DNA of 64,000 nt from Chthonobacter albigriseus. Lineage in GTDB: Bacteria > Pseudomonadota > Alphaproteobacteria > Rhizobiales > Pleomorphomonadaceae. A model generated the notes under the pieces. That model saw only the letters and a list, made by a program, of their open reading frames with translations. It ran no database searches and was not told the DNA's origin. The stretch spans positions 1,529,935-1,593,934 of the forward strand of contig NZ_JACDIT010000001.1 of assembly GCF_013839445.1 (NCBI RefSeq). The letters run 5' to 3'. This document shows positions 35,327 to 45,400 of this stretch, in pieces. The position numbers were made by a program, and so were the translations under genes. Position 1 is the stretch's first letter. Every line of letters begins with the position of its first letter.

Positions 35327-36340
35327 ATGGCCAGGGACGACACCGACCCCCTTGCGGCAGCCGAGGCCGCCGTGCGTTCGGCGACCCGCCCCGCCGCCGC
35401 CCCACGCGTCAATCCGGGCGAGCGGCTGCTGCGGACGGCGCTGAAGCTGCGCCACCTCAACCTGCTCGTGGCGTTGGACGACCACCGCAAGCTCCACCGG
35501 GCGGCCGCGTCCTTGAACCTGTCTCAGCCGGCAGCCTCCAAGATGCTCGGCGAGATCGAGAAGATCGTTGGCGTGCCCCTGTTCGACCGGCTCGCGCGTG
35601 GCGTCGAGCCTACCTGGTACGGCGAGGCTCTGATCCGGCGCACCCGGACCGTGCTGGCCGAACTGGGCCAGGCCGGCGAGGAGATTGCCGCGCTGCGGGC
35701 GGGCGAAGGGGGAACCGTCTCGGTCGGAACGGTGATGGCGCCGGCCGTCGACATCGTGGTGCCGGCGCTGGAGAGCGTCCGCCGCCGGCTCCCCCGCCTG
35801 CAGGTCACCGTCCAGGTGGACACCTCCGACGTCCTCTCCGAGCGACTTCTCGCCTCGCGGCTCGATTTCATCATCGGCCGCATTCCGGCGGGGATGAACC
35901 CCGCCCCTTTCGACTACCGTGAGGTGGGCGAGGAGGAGGCCTGCCTGATGGTGCGCGAAAGCCACCCGCTCGCCGCCCTGCCGCTGGTCCGCCCGGAGGA
36001 CCTGCACGATCGCGACTGGGTGCTGCAGCCGCGCGGCTCATTGCTCCGGCGCAGCGTGGAGGCGATGCTGCGGCGCCACGGCGTTCCCCCGCCGGTGCGC
36101 GTCGTCAACTCCGCCTCCCTGCTGATGACGATGTCAATGGCCGCCAAGACCGACGCGGTCGCGCCGATCGCGCTGAAGGTGGGCGAACTGCTGCTCTCCG
36201 CCGGCCGTTTCAAGCTGCTGCCGCTGACCGAACGGATCACGGTGGAGCCCTACGGCCTGATCAAGGCGCGTGGACGGCCGCTTTCTCCGGCGGCGGAAGT
36301 GCTCTACCGCGCCGTGGAGGACGAACTTTTCCCGGCGTGA
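35327..36340 (+). CDS. LysR family transcriptional regulator (GbpR-like)
   Basis: 337 aa from the ATG at 35327 (GGGAGGAAGC just upstream). A 30-residue polar leader precedes the HTH: LNLLVALDDHRKLHRAAASL and LSQPAASKMLGEIEKIVGVP (about 45-85). The substrate-binding domain follows from about residue 110 (GTVSVGTVMAPAVDIVVPAL). Divergent from gguC with a 158-bp AT-richer spacer (TGTTTGTGATATCGATTACG around 35284-35303) that should carry the operator. In Agrobacterium the LysR protein GbpR controls galactose/arabinose uptake near gguC, so a sugar-responsive role is likely. Confidence 0.9.
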   Translation: MARDDTDPLAAAEAAVRSATRPAAAPRVNPGERLLRTALKLRHLNLLVALDDHRKLHRAAASLNLSQPAASKMLGEIEKIVGVPLFDRLARGVEPTWYGEALIRRTRTVLAELGQAGEEIAALRAGEGGTVSVGTVMAPAVDIVVPALESVRRRLPRLQVTVQVDTSDVLSERLLASRLDFIIGRIPAGMNPAPFDYREVGEEEACLMVRESHPLAALPLVRPEDLHDRDWVLQPRGSLLRRSVEAMLRRHGVPPPVRVVNSASLLMTMSMAAKTDAVAPIALKVGELLLSAGRFKLLPLTERITVEPYGLIKARGRPLSPAAEVLYRAVEDELFPA

Positions 36341-36348
36341 GCCGGCCC

Positions 36349-36702
36349 TCAACCACAGAAGCCGATGCCGCCCTCGGCGGTGCCCGCGGCACCGTCGCCT
36401 TCCAGGAGAATCTCCAGCCGGCGGGCCTCGACGTAGAGCAGCTGCTTGGGCCGGATTTCCAGCGTGCCGGCCGGCGCGCCGGGCCTCTGGAAGCGGATCG
36501 TGACCCGAAGCTCCGGGCTGCTCACGGTGTCGAGCCTGAGCGCCCAGTAGCGGTCCGAGTAGCCGTCGACCAGGATCTGGCCGGCCTCGGCGGCGTCGGC
36601 GGGCTTGGCCACGCTCCACGGCAGCGTCTCGCAGCGCGGCGCGGCCGCGGCGCCTTGGCATGTCGCCAGGAAAAAGCCGATCAACAGGGCTGAACGCGTC
36701 AT
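36349..36702 (-). CDS. Small exported hypothetical protein
   Basis: 117 aa from the ATG at 36702, with a strong GGAGGTGAC ribosome-binding site. Signal peptide MTRSALLIGFFLATCQGAAA (cleavage near 21). The mature part has two Cys (in APRCETLPW and at GIGFCG near the end) that could form a disulfide. It reads like a small beta-rich periplasmic domain. No family is recognised. It ends 8 bp from the convergent LysR gene. Confidence 0.72.
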   Translation of the reverse strand: MTRSALLIGFFLATCQGAAAAPRCETLPWSVAKPADAAEAGQILVDGYSDRYWALRLDTVSSPELRVTIRFQRPGAPAGTLEIRPKQLLYVEARRLEILLEGDGAAGTAEGGIGFCG

Positions 36703-36938
36703 GTCACCTCCAGGGGCGGTCATCGGAACACGCCGCTCGCAGAAGCGTCAATGAGTTGATCAGGTTCGCGTTCCCTCGCGAGCCCCTGCGTCACCGCTCA
36801 TAGCGCGCCGGGATGGGCCGAGGGCCTGGATTGGATTCACCCCATGGCAAAACGACCACGGCCGGTATTACATTCGTCATCCGGAGATTATAGCTAGAAG
36901 ACAGGCCGCCGCGCGCGGCCGGCGAGGGAGGAGTTTCC

Positions 36939-38117
36939 ATGTCGGATGCGATCGTGAAGACGCCGCTGCAGTACCTGGACAGGGCGATGGCGGGCCTGCG
37001 CAATCTCGGCCTCGTGCCGGAGACGATGGAAGAGGCGCCGATCGTCGGCCTGCTGGAGAAGATTACCGACATCCACCCGGAGAAGATCGCGGTCATCACC
37101 CGCACGCTCACCCAGATGAGCGTCTTCAACGAGGTGGTCCGCGAGCAGATCTCCGAGATGGCCATCGGCCAGCGCTACGAGGAGATCACCAAGGCCTTCA
37201 ACTCGATCCGCGACGACGCCAAGGGGATGGTCGACCAGATCGGCGACGGCAAGATCGACGTCTTCGAGCGCGCCACCAACGCCTGGATGAAGATCTCCCG
37301 CGGCGACATCGCCTACCGCTTCGACGGCATCAAGGACACCTACCTCGCCGTCGCCAAGGACACCAAGGCCAACATCGAGCGCGAGCACGTCATCCTGGAG
37401 GCCTACCGCGACTTCCGCGGCGCGCTGAAGCAGGCAGAGGTCGCCGGTCTGGAGATCCTGGAGGCGGCGAACAAGAAGCTCGACGCCGCCAAGGCCGAGC
37501 TCGCCAAGGCCTCCGAGGCCGTCACCGCCTACGCCGGCAACGCCGCCGCCGAGCGGGCTCACCTGGAGCTGCTGCGCGACGAGGTGCTGCGCAAGCTGCA
37601 GACTGAGGAGGGCCGCTACCAGATCGCCAAGGATCTCGCCGATAACCTGACCATCGGCTACAACACCTCCGAGGTCATCATGGCCCGGCTGATGCAGACG
37701 ACCAGCGCCAAGGAGCGCGTCTACCAGCAGGCGGTGTCCTTCTTCTCCACCAACGAGAGCGTCCTCACCGCGCTGAAGGCCTCCTTCACCGGCCTGTTCG
37801 GCCTTCACGAGACCACCCAGACCCTGAACGAGATGAAGGAGGGCGTCTCCAAGTCGATCGAGGTGCTCGCCGAGATCGGCGGCAAGGTCCAGGAGGAGGC
37901 GCTGAAGGCCGGCTACGGCCCCACCATCCGCGCCGACGCGGTCAAGAAGCTGGTCGACAGCGTCGTCAACTTCCAGGAGCGCTCCACCGAGATCATCTCC
38001 GAGATGCGCGAGCTCGCCACCAAGAACTCCGAGGAGATCCGCAACGCGGTGGAGGACGGCAAGCGCCGCATGGCCCGCCTCGCCGCCGAGGGCAACGCCC
38101 TGGTGATCGATGGCTGA
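36939..38117 (+). CDS. Helical soluble protein, first gene of an uncharacterised three-gene cassette
   Basis: 392 aa, almost wholly alpha-helical and without signal peptide or membrane segment. GGAGGAGTTTCC precedes the ATG. Coiled-coil-like stretches are at about 165-205 (LEILEAANKKLDAAKAELAK) and 320-385 (ERSTEIISEMRELATKNSEE). A shorter motif GRYQIAKDLADNLTIGYNTSE sits near 226. The overall length and helical pattern recall TelA (toxic anion resistance) proteins, but I cannot confirm homology by eye. It overlaps the next gene by 8 bases and so is translationally coupled. Function unknown. Confidence 0.8.
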   Translation: MSDAIVKTPLQYLDRAMAGLRNLGLVPETMEEAPIVGLLEKITDIHPEKIAVITRTLTQMSVFNEVVREQISEMAIGQRYEEITKAFNSIRDDAKGMVDQIGDGKIDVFERATNAWMKISRGDIAYRFDGIKDTYLAVAKDTKANIEREHVILEAYRDFRGALKQAEVAGLEILEAANKKLDAAKAELAKASEAVTAYAGNAAAERAHLELLRDEVLRKLQTEEGRYQIAKDLADNLTIGYNTSEVIMARLMQTTSAKERVYQQAVSFFSTNESVLTALKASFTGLFGLHETTQTLNEMKEGVSKSIEVLAEIGGKVQEEALKAGYGPTIRADAVKKLVDSVVNFQERSTEIISEMRELATKNSEEIRNAVEDGKRRMARLAAEGNALVIDG

Positions 38118-39069
38118 CGTCTCCGCCGCCGGCCCGGGCGCAAGCGGCGGGGCTCCCGCGGGCCGGCTCGACGAGCTCATGCTGGCGATGGACGTGGTCG
38201 ACACGCTCCGCCACCAGGAGGGGCTCGTCGCCAAGGAACTGAGCCAGGACGCCCGTGACTCCGAGCTGAAGGAGCGCCTGCGCAAGCTCTACGAAAGCCA
38301 GGGCCTGGAGGTCTCCGACCGGATCCTGGAGGAAGGCATCCGCGCGCTGAAGGAGAGCCGCTTCGCCTACGAGCCGCCCCGGCAGAGCTTCGCGCTGACG
38401 CTGGCGAAGGCGTGGGTGAACCGCGGCAAGGTCGCCCGGGTGGTGCTGGCGCTCGCCGTCCTCGGCGCCGGCGTCTGGGGCTGGCAGTCCTGGCGGACGA
38501 GTTCGGAACAGGCCGCGACCGAGGCGGCGCGCGTCGAGATCACCGAGACGCTGCCCAAGTCGCTCGAGGCGGCAGCCGCGGCCGTGCTCGCCGAAGCCCG
38601 CGACGCCCGCGCCCAGCGGGTCGCCGCCGACCGCATCGCCGACGCCCGGGCGGCGCTCGCCCGCGGTGACGTCGCAGCCACGCGAACGGCCGTCGCCGCG
38701 ATCGACGCCTTGCGCGCCGAGCTGACGCGCACCTACGTGCTCCGCATCGTATCCCGGCCGGGCGAGAGTTCCGCCGTCTGGCGCATCCCGGACGTCAACT
38801 CCAGCGCCCGCAACCACTACCTGCTCGTCGAGGCGGTGACGCCCGGCGGCGAGGTCCTCCAGCTTCCCGTCACCAGCGAGGAGGACGGCAAGACCACCGC
38901 CGTCGCCATGTGGGGCGTCCGCGTCAGCGAGGCGACCTTCAACCGGGTGCGCCGCGACAAGGAGGCGGACGGCATCGTCAACGACAACATCGTCGGGGAG
39001 AAACCGCGCGGCTCCCTCGACGTCGCCTACGCCATGCCCGTTCTCGGCGGCGCCATCACCGCCTGGTAG
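38110..39069 (+). CDS. Single-pass membrane protein (DUF6384-like), second gene of the cassette
   Basis: 319 aa. The N-terminal 100 residues are soluble and helical: DELMLAMDVVDTLRHQEGLV (21-40), then KELSQDARDSELKERLRKLY. One membrane helix is at 108-126 (VARVVLALAVLGAGVWGWQS). A helical linker follows (130-210), then a small beta-rich domain (YVLRIVSRPGESSAVWRIPD near 214, ending in YAMPVLGGAITAW). The arrangement suggests an inner-membrane anchor with the C-domain on the far side. It starts inside the preceding gene and is followed after 11 bp by the coiled-coil gene. The DUF6384 name is from memory of the N-terminal pattern and is tentative. Confidence 0.78.
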   Translation: MADVSAAGPGASGGAPAGRLDELMLAMDVVDTLRHQEGLVAKELSQDARDSELKERLRKLYESQGLEVSDRILEEGIRALKESRFAYEPPRQSFALTLAKAWVNRGKVARVVLALAVLGAGVWGWQSWRTSSEQAATEAARVEITETLPKSLEAAAAAVLAEARDARAQRVAADRIADARAALARGDVAATRTAVAAIDALRAELTRTYVLRIVSRPGESSAVWRIPDVNSSARNHYLLVEAVTPGGEVLQLPVTSEEDGKTTAVAMWGVRVSEATFNRVRRDKEADGIVNDNIVGEKPRGSLDVAYAMPVLGGAITAW

Positions 39070-39080
39070 GACCTTGCCCC

Positions 39081-40484
39081 ATGATCTCGGCCCGTGAAGC
39101 CCTGACCTCGATCGAGCGCGCCATCCAGGGCGTGCGCCGCGACGAGGATCGCATTCTCGCCCTGCTGCGCGAAACCACCGCCGAGGGCGACCGCCTGCGC
39201 AGCGAGCGGGCGGAGGGCTTCCGCGCGCTCGCCCGGATCCGCCTGGATGCCTTGGCCCGCGACGAGGTGGTGGGCGAACTGGACCAGGCGGAGCGGCGGG
39301 CGCTGGAACTGCTGGACCGCCGGCGCGGCGCGGTCGATGCGATCGCCGACAGGCGCAAGGCGCTCTCCGCCCGCCTCGATGCGGCCGAGGAGGATCGCGA
39401 AGCGCGCGCCGCGGCCCGCGACGGAGCCATCGAGGCCATCGAGGCCTTGAGCGCCAAGGTGGAGGCCCGCATCGCCGACGATCCCGCCTGGAAGGCTGCC
39501 GACGAGGCGGTTCGCCGCGCCGAGACCGTCGCCGCCGAATCCGACCGCAAGGCCGCCCAGGCCGAGGCGGACCGGGAGGAGAAGCGCAAGCCCTACGAGG
39601 CCGACAGCCTGTTCATGTATCTCTGGAACCGCGGCTTCGGCACCCCCGCCTATTCGGCCGGTCCGCTCGCACGCTGGCTCGACGGCAAGGTCGCCGCGCT
39701 GATCGGCTACGAACACGCGCGGCCGAACTACTACATGCTCAACGAGATCCCCAAGCGCCTGCGCGAGCACGCCACCCGCGTCGCCGCGGACCTTCCCGGG
39801 GCCGTCGCCGCCCGCGAGGCCGTCGAACGCGCCGCGCTCGAAGCCGCCGGCGCCAAGGCGCTGGAGAAGAAGGCCGAGGAGATCGCCGCCCACCTGGCCG
39901 AGGCCGAGGCGGCGGTGGAGAAGATCAAGGCCGACCTGGCCGGACTCGACGACGAAGCCCGAGGCGCCCTCGACGAAACCGCCAATCCGGAGGTCAAGGG
40001 CGCGCTGGACGGCCTCGCCGCAGCCATCGCCCGCGAGGACCTGCGCAGCCTGTTCCGCGAGGCGCAGGCGACGCCGACGCCCGAGGACGAGGCGATCGTC
40101 CAGAAGCTCCTCGACGTCGAGCGCGCCCTGGTGCGCGTCGACGCCCAGATGGAGGAGCTGCGCAAGACCTCCCTCGACCTCGCCGGCCGCCGGACCGAGC
40201 TGGAGCACTCCGGCGAATCCTTCCGCAAGTCCGGCTACGACGACCCCTTCGGCGGCTTCATCAACGAGGCCGTCATTGGCGGTGTCATCGAGGGGATCAT
40301 CCGCGGCGCCCTGTCGTCCGGCAAGCTGGAGGAGGCTCTCGGCGACGGCTTCCGCCGGCGATCGCCACGCCTCGACCGCGGCGGCTTCGGCGGCGGCCTG
40401 CGGATTCCGTCGATGCCGCGCGGCGGTTCGCAGCCGCCCCGTTCCTCCGGTGGCGGCGGCTTCAGGACTGGCGGTTCATTCTGA
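39081..40484 (+). CDS. Coiled-coil protein with Gly-rich tail, third gene of the cassette
   Basis: 467 aa from the ATG at 39081 (TAGGA upstream). Two long charged coiled-coil regions (about 10-170 and 230-400) flank a conserved-looking island FMYLWNRGFGTPAYSAGPLA near 180. The C-terminus has a hydrophobic patch FGGFINEAVIGGVIEGIIRG near 400, then an Arg/Gly/Ser-rich tail ending SGGGGFRTGGSF. Such Gly-rich GGxFxTGGxF tails recur on membrane-associated stress proteins, but no named family is recognised. It has no signal peptide. The 11-bp spacing places it in an operon with the two preceding genes. Confidence 0.78.
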   Translation: MISAREALTSIERAIQGVRRDEDRILALLRETTAEGDRLRSERAEGFRALARIRLDALARDEVVGELDQAERRALELLDRRRGAVDAIADRRKALSARLDAAEEDREARAAARDGAIEAIEALSAKVEARIADDPAWKAADEAVRRAETVAAESDRKAAQAEADREEKRKPYEADSLFMYLWNRGFGTPAYSAGPLARWLDGKVAALIGYEHARPNYYMLNEIPKRLREHATRVAADLPGAVAAREAVERAALEAAGAKALEKKAEEIAAHLAEAEAAVEKIKADLAGLDDEARGALDETANPEVKGALDGLAAAIAREDLRSLFREAQATPTPEDEAIVQKLLDVERALVRVDAQMEELRKTSLDLAGRRTELEHSGESFRKSGYDDPFGGFINEAVIGGVIEGIIRGALSSGKLEEALGDGFRRRSPRLDRGGFGGGLRIPSMPRGGSQPPRSSGGGGFRTGGSF

Positions 40485-40618
40485 GACGACCGGCTCGGAA
40501 TCGGTTCACCGTGGCCGGATCTCCGGGCCGTTCCGGCCGGATTTGCAGCCCCGCGCTGACCCCGGGTTAACCGCCAAGGCCTTGGATGTGCGGACGAGAT
40601 CCGGACCCGAAGGCCTGC

Positions 40619-41032
40619 ATGTCGATCCACCTGACCGCCGAACGGCTCGCCGCCGCCTGCTTCCTCGCCCTGCTGGCCATCATCGGGCTGTTTGCCGGAC
40701 TCGTCGGCAACCTCGGCGTCGACGAACCCTTCGACAAGCTCGTTCATGCCGGCTTCTTCGCGAGCGCCACGGCAGGTCTGTTCTTCCTGTTCGGCCGCCG
40801 CGCGGCCGCTGCCGCTCTTGCCGCCTTCGCGGCCGGCGTGCTGGGCGAGATGGCGCAAGGTTTCATCGGCAGCCACACGGTTTCAACCGCGGACGTGCTG
40901 GCAAACGCGATCGGCATTCTTCTGGTTGTCGGCCTCGCGCTGCCCACCACCGGGGTGCGCCGCCGCCGGCGCGAACTGATCCGCGCCTTCCGCGCCGACC
41001 CGACCCATCCCGTCTGGCAGTCCCGCCGCTGA
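40619..41032 (+). CDS. VanZ family membrane protein
   Basis: 137 aa from the ATG at 40619. Four membrane segments with the VanZ-type motif DKLVHAGFFASATAGLFFLF (38-57), then GVLGEMAQGFIGSHTVSTAD and VLANAIGILLVVGLAL, giving the conserved Glu-x-x-Gln and Asp-x-x-Ala-Asn residues. The first VanZ protein gives low-level teicoplanin resistance, but most family members have no proven role. The C-terminal 30 residues are basic and cytosolic. Confidence 0.82.
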   Translation: MSIHLTAERLAAACFLALLAIIGLFAGLVGNLGVDEPFDKLVHAGFFASATAGLFFLFGRRAAAAALAAFAAGVLGEMAQGFIGSHTVSTADVLANAIGILLVVGLALPTTGVRRRRRELIRAFRADPTHPVWQSRR

Positions 41033-43700: not shown

Positions 43701-44909
43701 TCAGGGCGTCACGGGAGCCGGCGGGAGCGGCGGGTCGGTGATCACCCCGTCCACGGGATCGGTAACGGTGCTGTCGAGCGGGTCCGTCACCACGCCGTCG
43801 ACCGGTTCCTCGGCCGGCGGCTCGGCAAGCGCCGCCTGCTCTGCCAGATAGCCATAGTAGCCGCTCTGCTCGATCATCTTGTCCACGGCCGCCTGGACCA
43901 CCCCGTCCTCGGTGACCTCGCCCGGCTTGTTGGCCGCCGCCTTGAGCGCGTCGAGGACGCCGGCTTGCGCCGTCTCCGCAGCCAGCTTGGCGTCGTCGAG
44001 CGCCTTCTGAGCATCGTTGAGCGCGGTGGATGCCGCATCGATGGCGGTGGCCTCCGGGCTGGCGAGCGCCGCGGCGAGCGCATCACGCTTCAGCGTATCC
44101 TCCGGGGTCGGCGCTTCCAGCGCGTCGAGGGCATCGATCTCCGCCTGGATGTCGGTGAGGCTCTTGCCGGCAAGATCCGGATAGGCCGTATCGAAGGCCG
44201 TCCGGCTTGTGGTTACCCCCGTCTGGGCGTCGGTGATGGCCGTCTCCAGTCCGGCGAGATCCCCGGCGATGGCGTCGGCGGCGAACTTGGCCTGCGCATA
44301 GGCGGCGATGCGCCCGATCCGGGAGGTCGGCGCCGCGTTGATGTAGGCGTTGAGATTGGCATGGGCCGCGTTGAGCGCGCCCAGGCGGGCCGCCAGCGCC
44401 TTTTCCTTCCGGCTCTTCTTGGACGTCGTCGTCGTGCCGTCGACCGTCGCCGCGGCGACTTCGGTCTGCCTGGCGCTCTTCGCGCTCTTGGACGACTTCG
44501 CCGACTTGGTCGACTTCGCTGTCTTTGTCGACTTCGTGGACTTGGTCGACTTGGCGGACTTGGTGGTGGATGGGCCGGAAGCCTGGCTGCTCCTGGACGA
44601 CGTGCCGGAGGTCGCGCTGCCCGACGTACCGCCGGAACGGTCCGACTTGCCGCCCTGCGAGGAGGACTGGCCGCCTCCATGGCCACCCCCGCCGCCGTTG
44701 CCGCCTCCACCGCCTCCATTGCCGCCGCCGCCGTTGCCGCCACCGCCGTTGCCGCCTCCACCGCCGCCGTTGCCGCCGCGTTCGGCGAAGGCCTTGCTGG
44801 CGCCGAACAGGTCGACGCCGTCGAGGGCGGGGGCGAGGCTGCCGACGACGAACATCATCGCGCCGGCGAAGACGGTGACTTTCAGACGGGTGGTGTTCTG
44901 GATGCGCAT
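43701..44909 (-). CDS. Exported Gly-rich / Lys-Ser-Thr-repeat protein
   Basis: 402 aa from the ATG at 44909 (GGAGAGCAAG just upstream); a 93-residue longer frame is rejected. A signal-like segment (KVTVFAGAMMFVVGSLAPAL, about 10-29) is followed by a Gly/Asn-rich block (45-80) and a Lys-Ser-Thr-Ala repeat block (110-150, units KSTKST and AKSTKSAKSS). A helical Ala-rich domain follows (170-345), with a Pro/Asp/Val tail with repeats of the type PVDGVVTDP (370-400). The pattern resembles rhizobial secreted or surface proteins of unknown function. The basic repeat block could bind polyanions such as DNA or acidic polysaccharide; that is inference. Confidence 0.8.
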   Translation of the reverse strand: MRIQNTTRLKVTVFAGAMMFVVGSLAPALDGVDLFGASKAFAERGGNGGGGGGNGGGGNGGGGNGGGGGGNGGGGGHGGGQSSSQGGKSDRSGGTSGSATSGTSSRSSQASGPSTTKSAKSTKSTKSTKTAKSTKSAKSSKSAKSARQTEVAAATVDGTTTTSKKSRKEKALAARLGALNAAHANLNAYINAAPTSRIGRIAAYAQAKFAADAIAGDLAGLETAITDAQTGVTTSRTAFDTAYPDLAGKSLTDIQAEIDALDALEAPTPEDTLKRDALAAALASPEATAIDAASTALNDAQKALDDAKLAAETAQAGVLDALKAAANKPGEVTEDGVVQAAVDKMIEQSGYYGYLAEQAALAEPPAEEPVDGVVTDPLDSTVTDPVDGVITDPPLPPAPVTP

Positions 44910-45160
44910 CTTGCTCTCCGTGCGTTTCCGATGACGGACGAACGAAGCGTTGGCGCAGTCTATTCCGGCGGTTCCAGCTGGGTTGACCGCAGGGTTGCGG
45001 AAGCGTTCACGGCCCGCTTCACGCTTGATTTGAATTGCGATCGGGTCTGTGCCGCATACATCTACAAAAAAATATCTGTTGCGACGGCACCAAATCCGTC
45101 GTCGCGCGTTTGCTAACGGACCCACGCGAGTTTGTGGTGTGGACTGGAGGAAAATAAGGA

Positions 45161-45400
45161 ATGGCTGACGACATCCACGCAATCGCACCAGCGGCAGTCT
45201 CGCAGGCGGATCTCGACAAGGCGCTGGCCGAACTGGCTCGCATCGAGGCCGACAGCAAGTTCCGCGGCGAACGCCCCGGTCGCTACCGGTCCGCCCTGGT
45301 CGGCGCGCGCGCGAAGGTGGAACGGATCGCCACCCAGCTGAACGCCCGCGTCCCCGGCTCGGGCCCCGGCTTCCGGTCGCGCCGTACGGCCGACGTCTGA
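45161..45400 (+). CDS. Small hypothetical protein
   Basis: 79 aa with a strong GGAGGAAAATAAGGA leader before the ATG. The central part is helical (ADLDKALAELARIEADSKFR) and the C-terminus basic (VPGSGPGFRSRRTADV). No family is recognised; no signal or membrane segment. It lies divergent to the Gly-rich protein gene, with an AT-rich spacer at 45040-45120 that should hold its promoter. Confidence 0.65.
   Translation: MADDIHAIAPAAVSQADLDKALAELARIEADSKFRGERPGRYRSALVGARAKVERIATQLNARVPGSGPGFRSRRTADV

What the first reader, a model, noticed from the sequence alone, without database searches (positions are those of the whole stretch)
36939..40484. Three-gene translationally coupled cassette of unknown function
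A helical soluble protein (392 aa), a single-pass membrane protein (319 aa) and a coiled-coil protein with a GGGGFRTGGSF tail (467 aa) are packed with an 8-bp overlap and an 11-bp gap. None has catalytic motifs. The design (cytosolic helical partner, membrane anchor with an outward domain, coiled-coil protein with a sticky tail) looks like a scaffold or membrane-stress complex. The first protein faintly recalls TelA. A GGAAC-N16-CGTC element (36725-36749) may place it under general stress control.
Basis: partly seen in the sequence, partly recalled or inferred. Interest (0 to 1): 0.68.

Follow-up and report, generated by a model that had tools for sequence, protein, structure and literature searches.

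The report
Uncharacterised three-gene membrane-linked module
Three neighbouring bacterial genes of unknown function turn out to travel together as one unit in bacteria, on large plasmids and in a giant phage, which points to a shared membrane-bound machine for which no study was found.

Summary
The three genes are as described: A 36939-38117, B 38110-39069, C 39081-40484. B is DUF6384 (PF19911, E 8.8e-123, function unknown); A and C match no family over its cut-off. In 41 of 41 loci fetched with B, A lies upstream; C follows in 40. Conversely, 46 of 47 other A-bearing genomes of the order have B next to A. A and B sit on the same 11 of 72,556 plasmid records, and the trio is in jumbo phage phiR1-37 (g190-g192; C there by position, length and tail only). 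C ends in a conserved peptide (chromosomes mostly F-x-T-G-G-x-F; most Pseudomonas plasmids and the phage F-x-S/T-S-D-x-F). My reading: B anchors a complex in the inner membrane, A is a TelA-like or pore-toxin-like helical bundle inside the cell, C a coiled-coil linker whose tail docks within the complex. Unity is shown; mechanism is inferred. General-stress control is not supported (promoter element upstream in 0 of 37 relatives). Kinship of A to TelA is weak and only structural.

The parts
36939..38117 (+). Gene A, 392 aa, all-helical protein without strong hydrophobic segment, no named family; best conserved of the three
   Evidence: ORF; no family over cut-off; 56-83% identity to 33 relatives; model pLDDT 69.9, pTM 0.60; hydropathy
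38110..38117 (+). 8-bp overlap of A and B; exactly the same overlap in 14 of 42 related loci (starts of relatives chosen as the nearest Met)
38110..39069 (+). Gene B, DUF6384 (PF19911), single-pass membrane protein
   Evidence: Pfam E 8.8e-123; model pLDDT 84.5, pTM 0.56
38425..38481 (+). B transmembrane segment (aa 106-124)
   Evidence: hydropathy 1.51, Arg/Lys on the N-terminal side
38728..39066 (+). B C-terminal beta domain (aa 207-319), predicted periplasmic, ending in Trp
   Evidence: model; the PDB rows listed hardly test this part; Trp within the last 4 residues in 37 of 39
39081..40484 (+). Gene C, 467 aa, coiled-coil-like protein with a conserved central region around K-x-PY-x-D-x-LF-x-YLW
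   Evidence: no family over cut-off
40257..40313 (+). C glycine-rich hydrophobic segment (aa 393-411)
   Evidence: hydropathy 1.29 here, up to 1.89 in the chromosomal relatives printed; weaker in most plasmid and phage versions
40449..40481 (+). C tail GGGGFRTGGSF, conserved C-terminal motif
   Evidence: 36 of 37 untruncated C proteins fit a loose pattern, 32 of 37 a strict one; 13 of 13 genome matches of one form lie at a cassette
36725..36749 (+). GGAAC-N16-CGTC string; not conserved, probably chance

Best explanation
A, B and C encode one three-part complex at the inner membrane. B crosses the membrane once: its N-terminal helical domain is cytosolic and its three-helix bundle plus beta domain are periplasmic and could sense or bind something there. 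A is a soluble helical bundle that binds B's cytosolic domain and/or the membrane surface. C is an elongated coiled-coil protein that gathers copies of the complex through its Gly/Ser linker and its terminal F-x-[TS]-[GS]-[GD]-x-F peptide, which docks on A or B. Together they would form a sub-membrane scaffold that protects or partitions the envelope, used by cells and carried by large mobile elements. SHOWN: one co-inherited unit; the tail and, for one form of it in 16 genomes, its restriction to the cassette. PREDICTED: B's topology and domains, A's helical bundle. INFERRED: physical complex, docking of the tail, scaffold role, benefit.
For: Adjacency: A in 41 of 41 and C in 40 of 41 loci fetched with B; 46 of 47 other A-bearing genomes have B next to A; A and B on the same 11 plasmid records; trio in phage phiR1-37. 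Among the 25 largest gene clusters printed for the flanks of 40 loci, none but A, B and C is shared by more than 12, and those with 7-12 are almost confined to Pleomorphomonas and similar contigs. Distances of A, B and C correlate at r 0.925 (A-B), 0.891 (A-C) and 0.930 (B-C) over 39 trios, permutation maximum 0.50. The tail changes sequence but stays terminal; internal copies in 11 of 37 C proteins, 0.73 expected from shuffles; in 16 genomes the DNA pattern for GF[KRHQNS]TGG-x-F-stop occurs 13 times, all at a cassette by position, its reversed control 0 times. B topology. A's model resembles helical membrane-acting proteins; weak sub-cut-off hits of A to apolipophorin (E 0.022) and phasin (E 0.0087) models point the same way. 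The three phage genes are not flagged as virion proteins in a record that flags others.
Against: No experiment, and no paper found. A's model has modest confidence (pLDDT 69.9; 283-331, part of its best conserved sequence, below 50). C was not modelled. Correlated distances are also expected from shared genome history. Phage Dfl-JY45 has B and a C-like gene without an adjacent A, and genome G508 has a diverged A-like protein without B, so the trio is not strictly obligate. In phiR1-37 the C counterpart is not detected by the C profile. Five of the 16 genomes lack that tail form. No phenotype or stress link was found. C could be membrane-inserted through its glycine-rich segment rather than a soluble linker.
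Confidence: 0.4

Rival explanations
1. It is a distant form of the TelA (toxic anion / Ter) system: A is a diverged TelA that forms sub-membrane structures and answers a Ter-type signal, giving resistance to toxic anions, colicins or phages.
For: Best hit of A's model among predicted viral proteins is a TelA (E 2.8e-3), and another tellurite resistance protein ranks 9 (E 0.010); similar length, collinear global profile alignment (Prob 9.6%); on pMPPla107 and pBASL58 the cassette lies shortly downstream, on the same strand, of StiP-PELOTA and PTH2 genes, StiP being called tellurite-like stress resistance in Pfam; a jumbo phage review describes TelA as forming sub-membrane structures and as present in jumbo phages (PMC7824862, passages).
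Against: TelA HMM has no match in A or in this genome. Local profile-profile Prob 4.3%, less than A against C (6.0%). TMq 0.25 and 0.30. StiP is in only 3 of the 12 plasmid/phage records and 0 of the 3 genomes searched. No XpaC match for B or C.
Confidence: 0.22
2. It is an envelope-acting defence or conflict module: A is a pore-toxin-like (ClyA/XaxA-type) bundle held in check by B and C and released on phage or plasmid attack.
For: The 14 best VIA-align rows for A are alpha-pore-forming toxins of this kind (grouping recalled; XaxA Z 14.2, rmsd 5.1, 280 aligned; ClyA Z 12.3, rmsd 4.5, 239 aligned); patchy distribution and carriage on mobile elements.
Against: Foldseek has no hit at E 0.001 or better (best 0.023); for helical models Z near 14 can be only a common arrangement (note). 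A has no strongly hydrophobic segment (best 19-mer 0.85). No PADLOC match under E 0.005. No recurring neighbour across genera among the clusters printed.
Confidence: 0.1
3. The cassette is a specialised organiser of surface or polar structures (for example attachment or appendage assembly) with no stress or conflict role.
For: Frequent in the window's own order (48 of 199 genomes by A) and rare in wider draws (2 of 289 in the class by DUF6384; 2 of 398 in the phylum by A; all counts include the window's own genome), as for lineage-specific cell-surface traits.
Against: Presence in a lytic jumbo phage and in seven Pseudomonas plasmids is hard to fit.
Confidence: 0.15

Closest known systems
TelA / toxic anion resistance family (PF05816), with XpaC
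   Same: Soluble helical protein of similar length; top predicted-structure hit among viral proteins; also found in phages
   Different: No HMM match, profile comparison not significant; the TelA loci scanned carry no protein with the C tail
Alpha-pore-forming toxins of the ClyA / XaxA / AhlB / HBL kind
   Same: Predicted long-helix bundle aligned over residues 29-369 of A (XaxA row); several of those systems are tripartite (titles)
   Different: No significant Foldseek E-value, 5-9% identity in the 14 best rows, no strongly hydrophobic segment in A; B's model shows no such match, C was not modelled
PspA / IM30 (PF04012) envelope stress system
   Same: Cytosolic helical protein that acts at the inner membrane with membrane partners (recalled)
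   Different: No HMM match of A; occurrence neither associated nor exclusive (11 of 48 with A, 29 of 151 without; Fisher p 0.68)
DUF6384 (PF19911)
   Same: B is a full-length member (E 8.8e-123)
   Different: Family of unknown function; no paper found

Membership tests
DUF6384 (PF19911) | Match over the curated cut-off, full length | tested here: met
   B 409.8 bits against cut-off 25, profile 4-308 of 308
TelA (PF05816) | HMM match over cut-off | tested here: not met
   A has no TelA match at E 1 or better; genome G000 has none
TelA (PF05816) | Profile-profile similarity over controls | tested here: inconclusive
   Prob 4.3% local, 9.6% global; reversed TelA 0.2%; A against C 6.0% local
TelA (PF05816) | Same fold | tested here: inconclusive
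   Top BFVD hit E 2.8e-3, TMq 0.25
TelA (PF05816) | XpaC partner gene (recalled as usual partner) | tested here: not met
   B and C give no XpaC match at E 1 or better in Pfam
PspA/IM30 (PF04012) | HMM match | tested here: not met
   No match for A, none in G000
ClyA/XaxA-type alpha-PFT | Fold | tested here: inconclusive
   VIA-align Z 14.2-11.6 for the 14 best rows, all of this kind, but Foldseek best E 0.023
ClyA/XaxA-type alpha-PFT | Hydrophobic membrane-inserting head | tested here: inconclusive
   Best 19-mer of A 0.85; model unreliable at 283-331
ClyA/XaxA-type alpha-PFT | Pore formation | not testable with these tools
   needs an assay
Known anti-phage defence systems (PADLOC) | Match to a defence HMM | tested here: not met
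   Only weak hits for A (ZorA E 0.0051, PtuA E 0.0098); none for B, C at E 0.1

The most novel reading that the evidence does not exclude
A previously undescribed kind of trans-envelope machine: a cytosolic protein with the bundle of pore-forming toxins or TelA, put to use as a reversible membrane effector, held by a DUF6384 anchor with a periplasmic sensor domain and clustered by a coiled-coil protein with a multivalent, self-specific peptide tail; megaplasmids and jumbo phage phiR1-37 carry it to control the host inner membrane.
Probability: 0.13. Interest if true: 0.85.

Novelty: categorically new. Interest (0 to 1): 0.62.

Why it matters
Two of the three proteins belong to no named family, although A is recognisable from bacterial chromosomes to a jumbo phage (40% identity). 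A module kept together on chromosomes, large plasmids and a giant phage, with a C-terminal peptide that seems private to it, makes direct tests possible: does the tail bind A or B, where does the complex sit, and what does it protect the cell or the phage from? 'Categorically new' here means that the only tested membership that was met is the family of unknown function DUF6384; it does not mean that the function is known to be new.

Tried and rejected
Sigma-70-like promoters: 0 found in 36300-40800.

Functional replacement of PspA or TelA: in the order draw of 199 genomes (the same handles as far as the lists show) PspA is in 11 of 48 genomes with A and 29 of 151 without (p 0.68), TelA in 1 of 48 and 7 of 151 (p 0.68). 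An apparent exclusion in a first draw of 31 (PspA in 1 of 10 with A, 7 of 21 without; counted) disappeared in the larger set.

Tail as a general sorting signal: not supported in the 16 genomes tested with one form of it; 13 of 13 matches, in 11 of 16 genomes, lie at a cassette. The 22 TelA-search loci carry no ORF of 80 aa or more with such a tail.

Sequence searches of solved structures with A, B and C profiles: chance-like or coiled-coil hits. PHROGs: weak hits only (B spanin-like E 0.0049, A E 0.091). Pfam scan of 15 A and 14 C relatives: nothing consistent (ApoLp-III in 4 of 15 A members, best E 0.0072). B's model: no Foldseek PDB hit at 0.001 or better; VIA-align rows cover mainly 139-209, so the beta domain is barely tested. 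More viral copies: six viral-contig scans, which need an exact peptide pattern, gave only phiR1-37. DUF6384 in the class of G290: 0 of 48, a search in which nothing rang anywhere, so it does not show absence.

Papers (held library only, supplements not seen): DUF6384 0, PF19911 and three accessions 0, Dfl-JY45 0; phiR1-37 transcriptome and receptor papers searched in the main text for g190-g192: 0 (listing). Other searches (listings only) brought nothing on the trio; the Ter paper of 2012 is not held.

Own errors found: in alignment A4 the row from the M. extorquens megaplasmid (L112) was in a wrong frame; corrected, on which the conclusions rest. In one search at least two TelA rows (L046, L052) were wrong-frame ORFs; repeated.
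Full report
Observation. The three ORFs, the 8-bp overlap and the 11-bp gap are real; for C the ATG at 39081 is preferred over the longer mechanical ORF because relatives begin there. A short divergent ORF lies upstream (36349-36723, minus strand) and a weak VanZ-like ORF downstream (PF04892 E 0.0028, below its cut-off).

What the proteins are. B is DUF6384 (PF19911, 409.8 bits). A and C have no match over a cut-off in Pfam or NCBIfam and nothing significant in PHROGs. B's model (pLDDT 84.5, pTM 0.56) has a long N-terminal helix, one transmembrane helix, a three-helix bundle (about 140-206) and a C-terminal beta domain ending in a Trp, which is within the last 4 residues in 37 of 39 trios. The charge pattern puts the N-terminus inside. 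A's model is all helical (pLDDT 69.9, pTM 0.60) with a long hairpin (124-291), most of it confident, and an unreliable stretch at 283-331, which overlaps part of its best conserved sequence. C was not modelled; it has weak similarity to coiled coils, a conserved central region around K-x-PY-x-D-x-LF-x-YLW, a glycine-rich hydrophobic segment and the tail.

One unit. A genome-contig scan with B gave 41 loci: A is upstream in 41 (in some of them cut by the contig start) and C downstream in 40, the remaining contig ending inside B. In the reverse direction A was found in 48 of 199 genomes of the window's order; of the 47 other than the window's own, 46 have DUF6384, each within about 0.3 kb of A on the same strand by the coordinates of the two calls. 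The exception, G508, has a shortened, 33% identical A-like protein and no B or C detected in 11.5 kb around it. With starts of relatives chosen as the nearest Met, A-B spacing is between -52 and +50 bp in 39 of 42 loci (14 with exactly -8) and B-C spacing between -4 and +35 in 36 of 42. No other gene accompanies the trio across genera: of the 25 largest clusters printed for the flanks of 40 loci, those beyond A, B and C have 12 loci or fewer; the ones with 7-12 are almost confined to Pleomorphomonas and similar contigs, and the next, a dehydrogenase-like family, has 5. In wider draws it is rare: 2 of 289 genomes of the class (by DUF6384) and 2 of 398 of the phylum (by A), the window's own genome counted in both and the second phylum match being of the same order. 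The named loci include some Gammaproteobacteria and Lysobacterales.

Mobile elements. A and B are on the same 11 of 72,556 plasmid records: seven Pseudomonas, and Microvirga, Bradyrhizobium, Methylorubrum extorquens AM1 and Rhizobium leguminosarum. C follows in the 10 that I opened; the Microvirga record was not opened. Of 50,697 phage records only Yersinia phage phiR1-37 (two entries) has A. Its g190, g191 and g192 correspond to A (profile E 1e-121), B (3e-30) and, by position, length and tail only, C (profile not significant). None of the three is flagged as structural in a record that flags virion proteins. Dolichospermum phage Dfl-JY45 has B and a C-like protein ending VTGGGF, but no A beside them. 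Over 39 complete trios (those complete in the rows given to the aligners plus ten plasmid and phage loci; L117, close to L110, left out) the distances of the three proteins are strongly correlated; shared genome history alone would also give correlation, so this shows common inheritance, not contact.

The tail. Of 37 untruncated C proteins 36 end in [FWIY]-x-[TSN]-x-x-x-[FIL] and 32 in the strict form [FW]-x-[TS]-[GST]-[GD]-x-[FIL]; two of the 39 were dropped because their loci end inside C. The linker before it is Gly-rich in most chromosomal forms and Ser-rich in several plasmid and phage forms, while the motif stays terminal. Eleven of 37 have an extra internal copy against 0.73 in shuffles. 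In 16 cassette-bearing genomes the DNA pattern for GF[KRHQNS]TGG-x-F-stop gives 13 matches in 11 genomes, all at a cassette by position, and its reversed control none; the other 5 genomes and other forms of the tail are not tested by it. So this peptide looks specific to the system, which speaks for a partner within it.

Fold of A. Foldseek against the PDB has no hit at 0.001 or better; best is XaxA at 0.023. VIA-align ranks alpha-pore-forming toxins in the first 14 rows (XaxA Z 14.2, rmsd 5.1, 280 aligned; ClyA Z 12.3, rmsd 4.5, 239 aligned), then a designed protein at 11.3 and BAR proteins from 10.5 among further toxins. The tool's note says that Z near 14 can be a common arrangement for helical models. 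Among predicted viral proteins the best hit is a TelA (E 2.8e-3, TMq 0.25), again none at 0.001 or better. TelA and A are not significantly related by sequence profiles. I read this as a helical bundle of the membrane-acting kind, family undecided.

Links to known systems. On two Pseudomonas megaplasmids (pMPPla107, pBASL58) the trio lies shortly downstream of StiP-PELOTA and PTH2 genes on the same strand; Pfam describes StiP as tellurite-like stress resistance. StiP is in 3 of the 12 plasmid and phage records tested and in none of the three genomes tested, so the link is limited to some Pseudomonas megaplasmids. A review of jumbo phages (PMC7824862, passages only) describes TelA as forming sub-membrane structures against phages and xenobiotics and lists TelA in jumbo phages; this trio would fit such a role without being TelA. 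PspA and TelA show no association with A in the order survey.

Regulation. The proposed stress promoter is not conserved. The G+C content of the cassette (0.65 to 0.74 in 1-kb windows) is near that of its surroundings (0.65 to 0.71), so it gives no sign of recent import.

Conclusion. A conserved three-gene inner-membrane module for which I found no description. Unity: about 0.95 confidence.

Noticed in passing
L111 8588-11797 and L116 8495-11028 (pMPPla107, pBASL58): StiP-PELOTA and PTH2 genes, with a metallophosphoesterase on pMPPla107, shortly upstream of the trio; dCTP deaminase downstream (also on the FeN3W plasmid).
   Followed up: partly
L107 5085-6086, minus strand: Diverged A-like protein (profile E 1.3e-42) without B or C nearby in genome G508.
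   Followed up: partly
L122 7978-10709 (Dolichospermum phage Dfl-JY45): B plus C-like pair without an adjacent A in a 209-kb phage; the DELMLAMDVVDTLRH motif of B's N-terminal domain is missing.
   Followed up: partly
G466 and G091 (loci L003, L004): Two copies of the cassette in one genome.
   Followed up: no
G532 against G556: Two species of one genus, one with and one without A: gain or loss at the genus level.
   Followed up: no
L040, L042, L043 and most plasmid/phage B proteins: B is longer (417-501 aa) through extra sequence behind the membrane segment.
   Followed up: no
window 43701-45188, minus strand: ORF with a long glycine/asparagine-rich and Ser/Lys/Thr-repeat region behind a possible signal peptide.
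   Followed up: no
L110 20782-21828 (plasmid of P. aeruginosa PA83): Type IV CRISPR gene csf2 about 5 kb from the trio.
   Followed up: no
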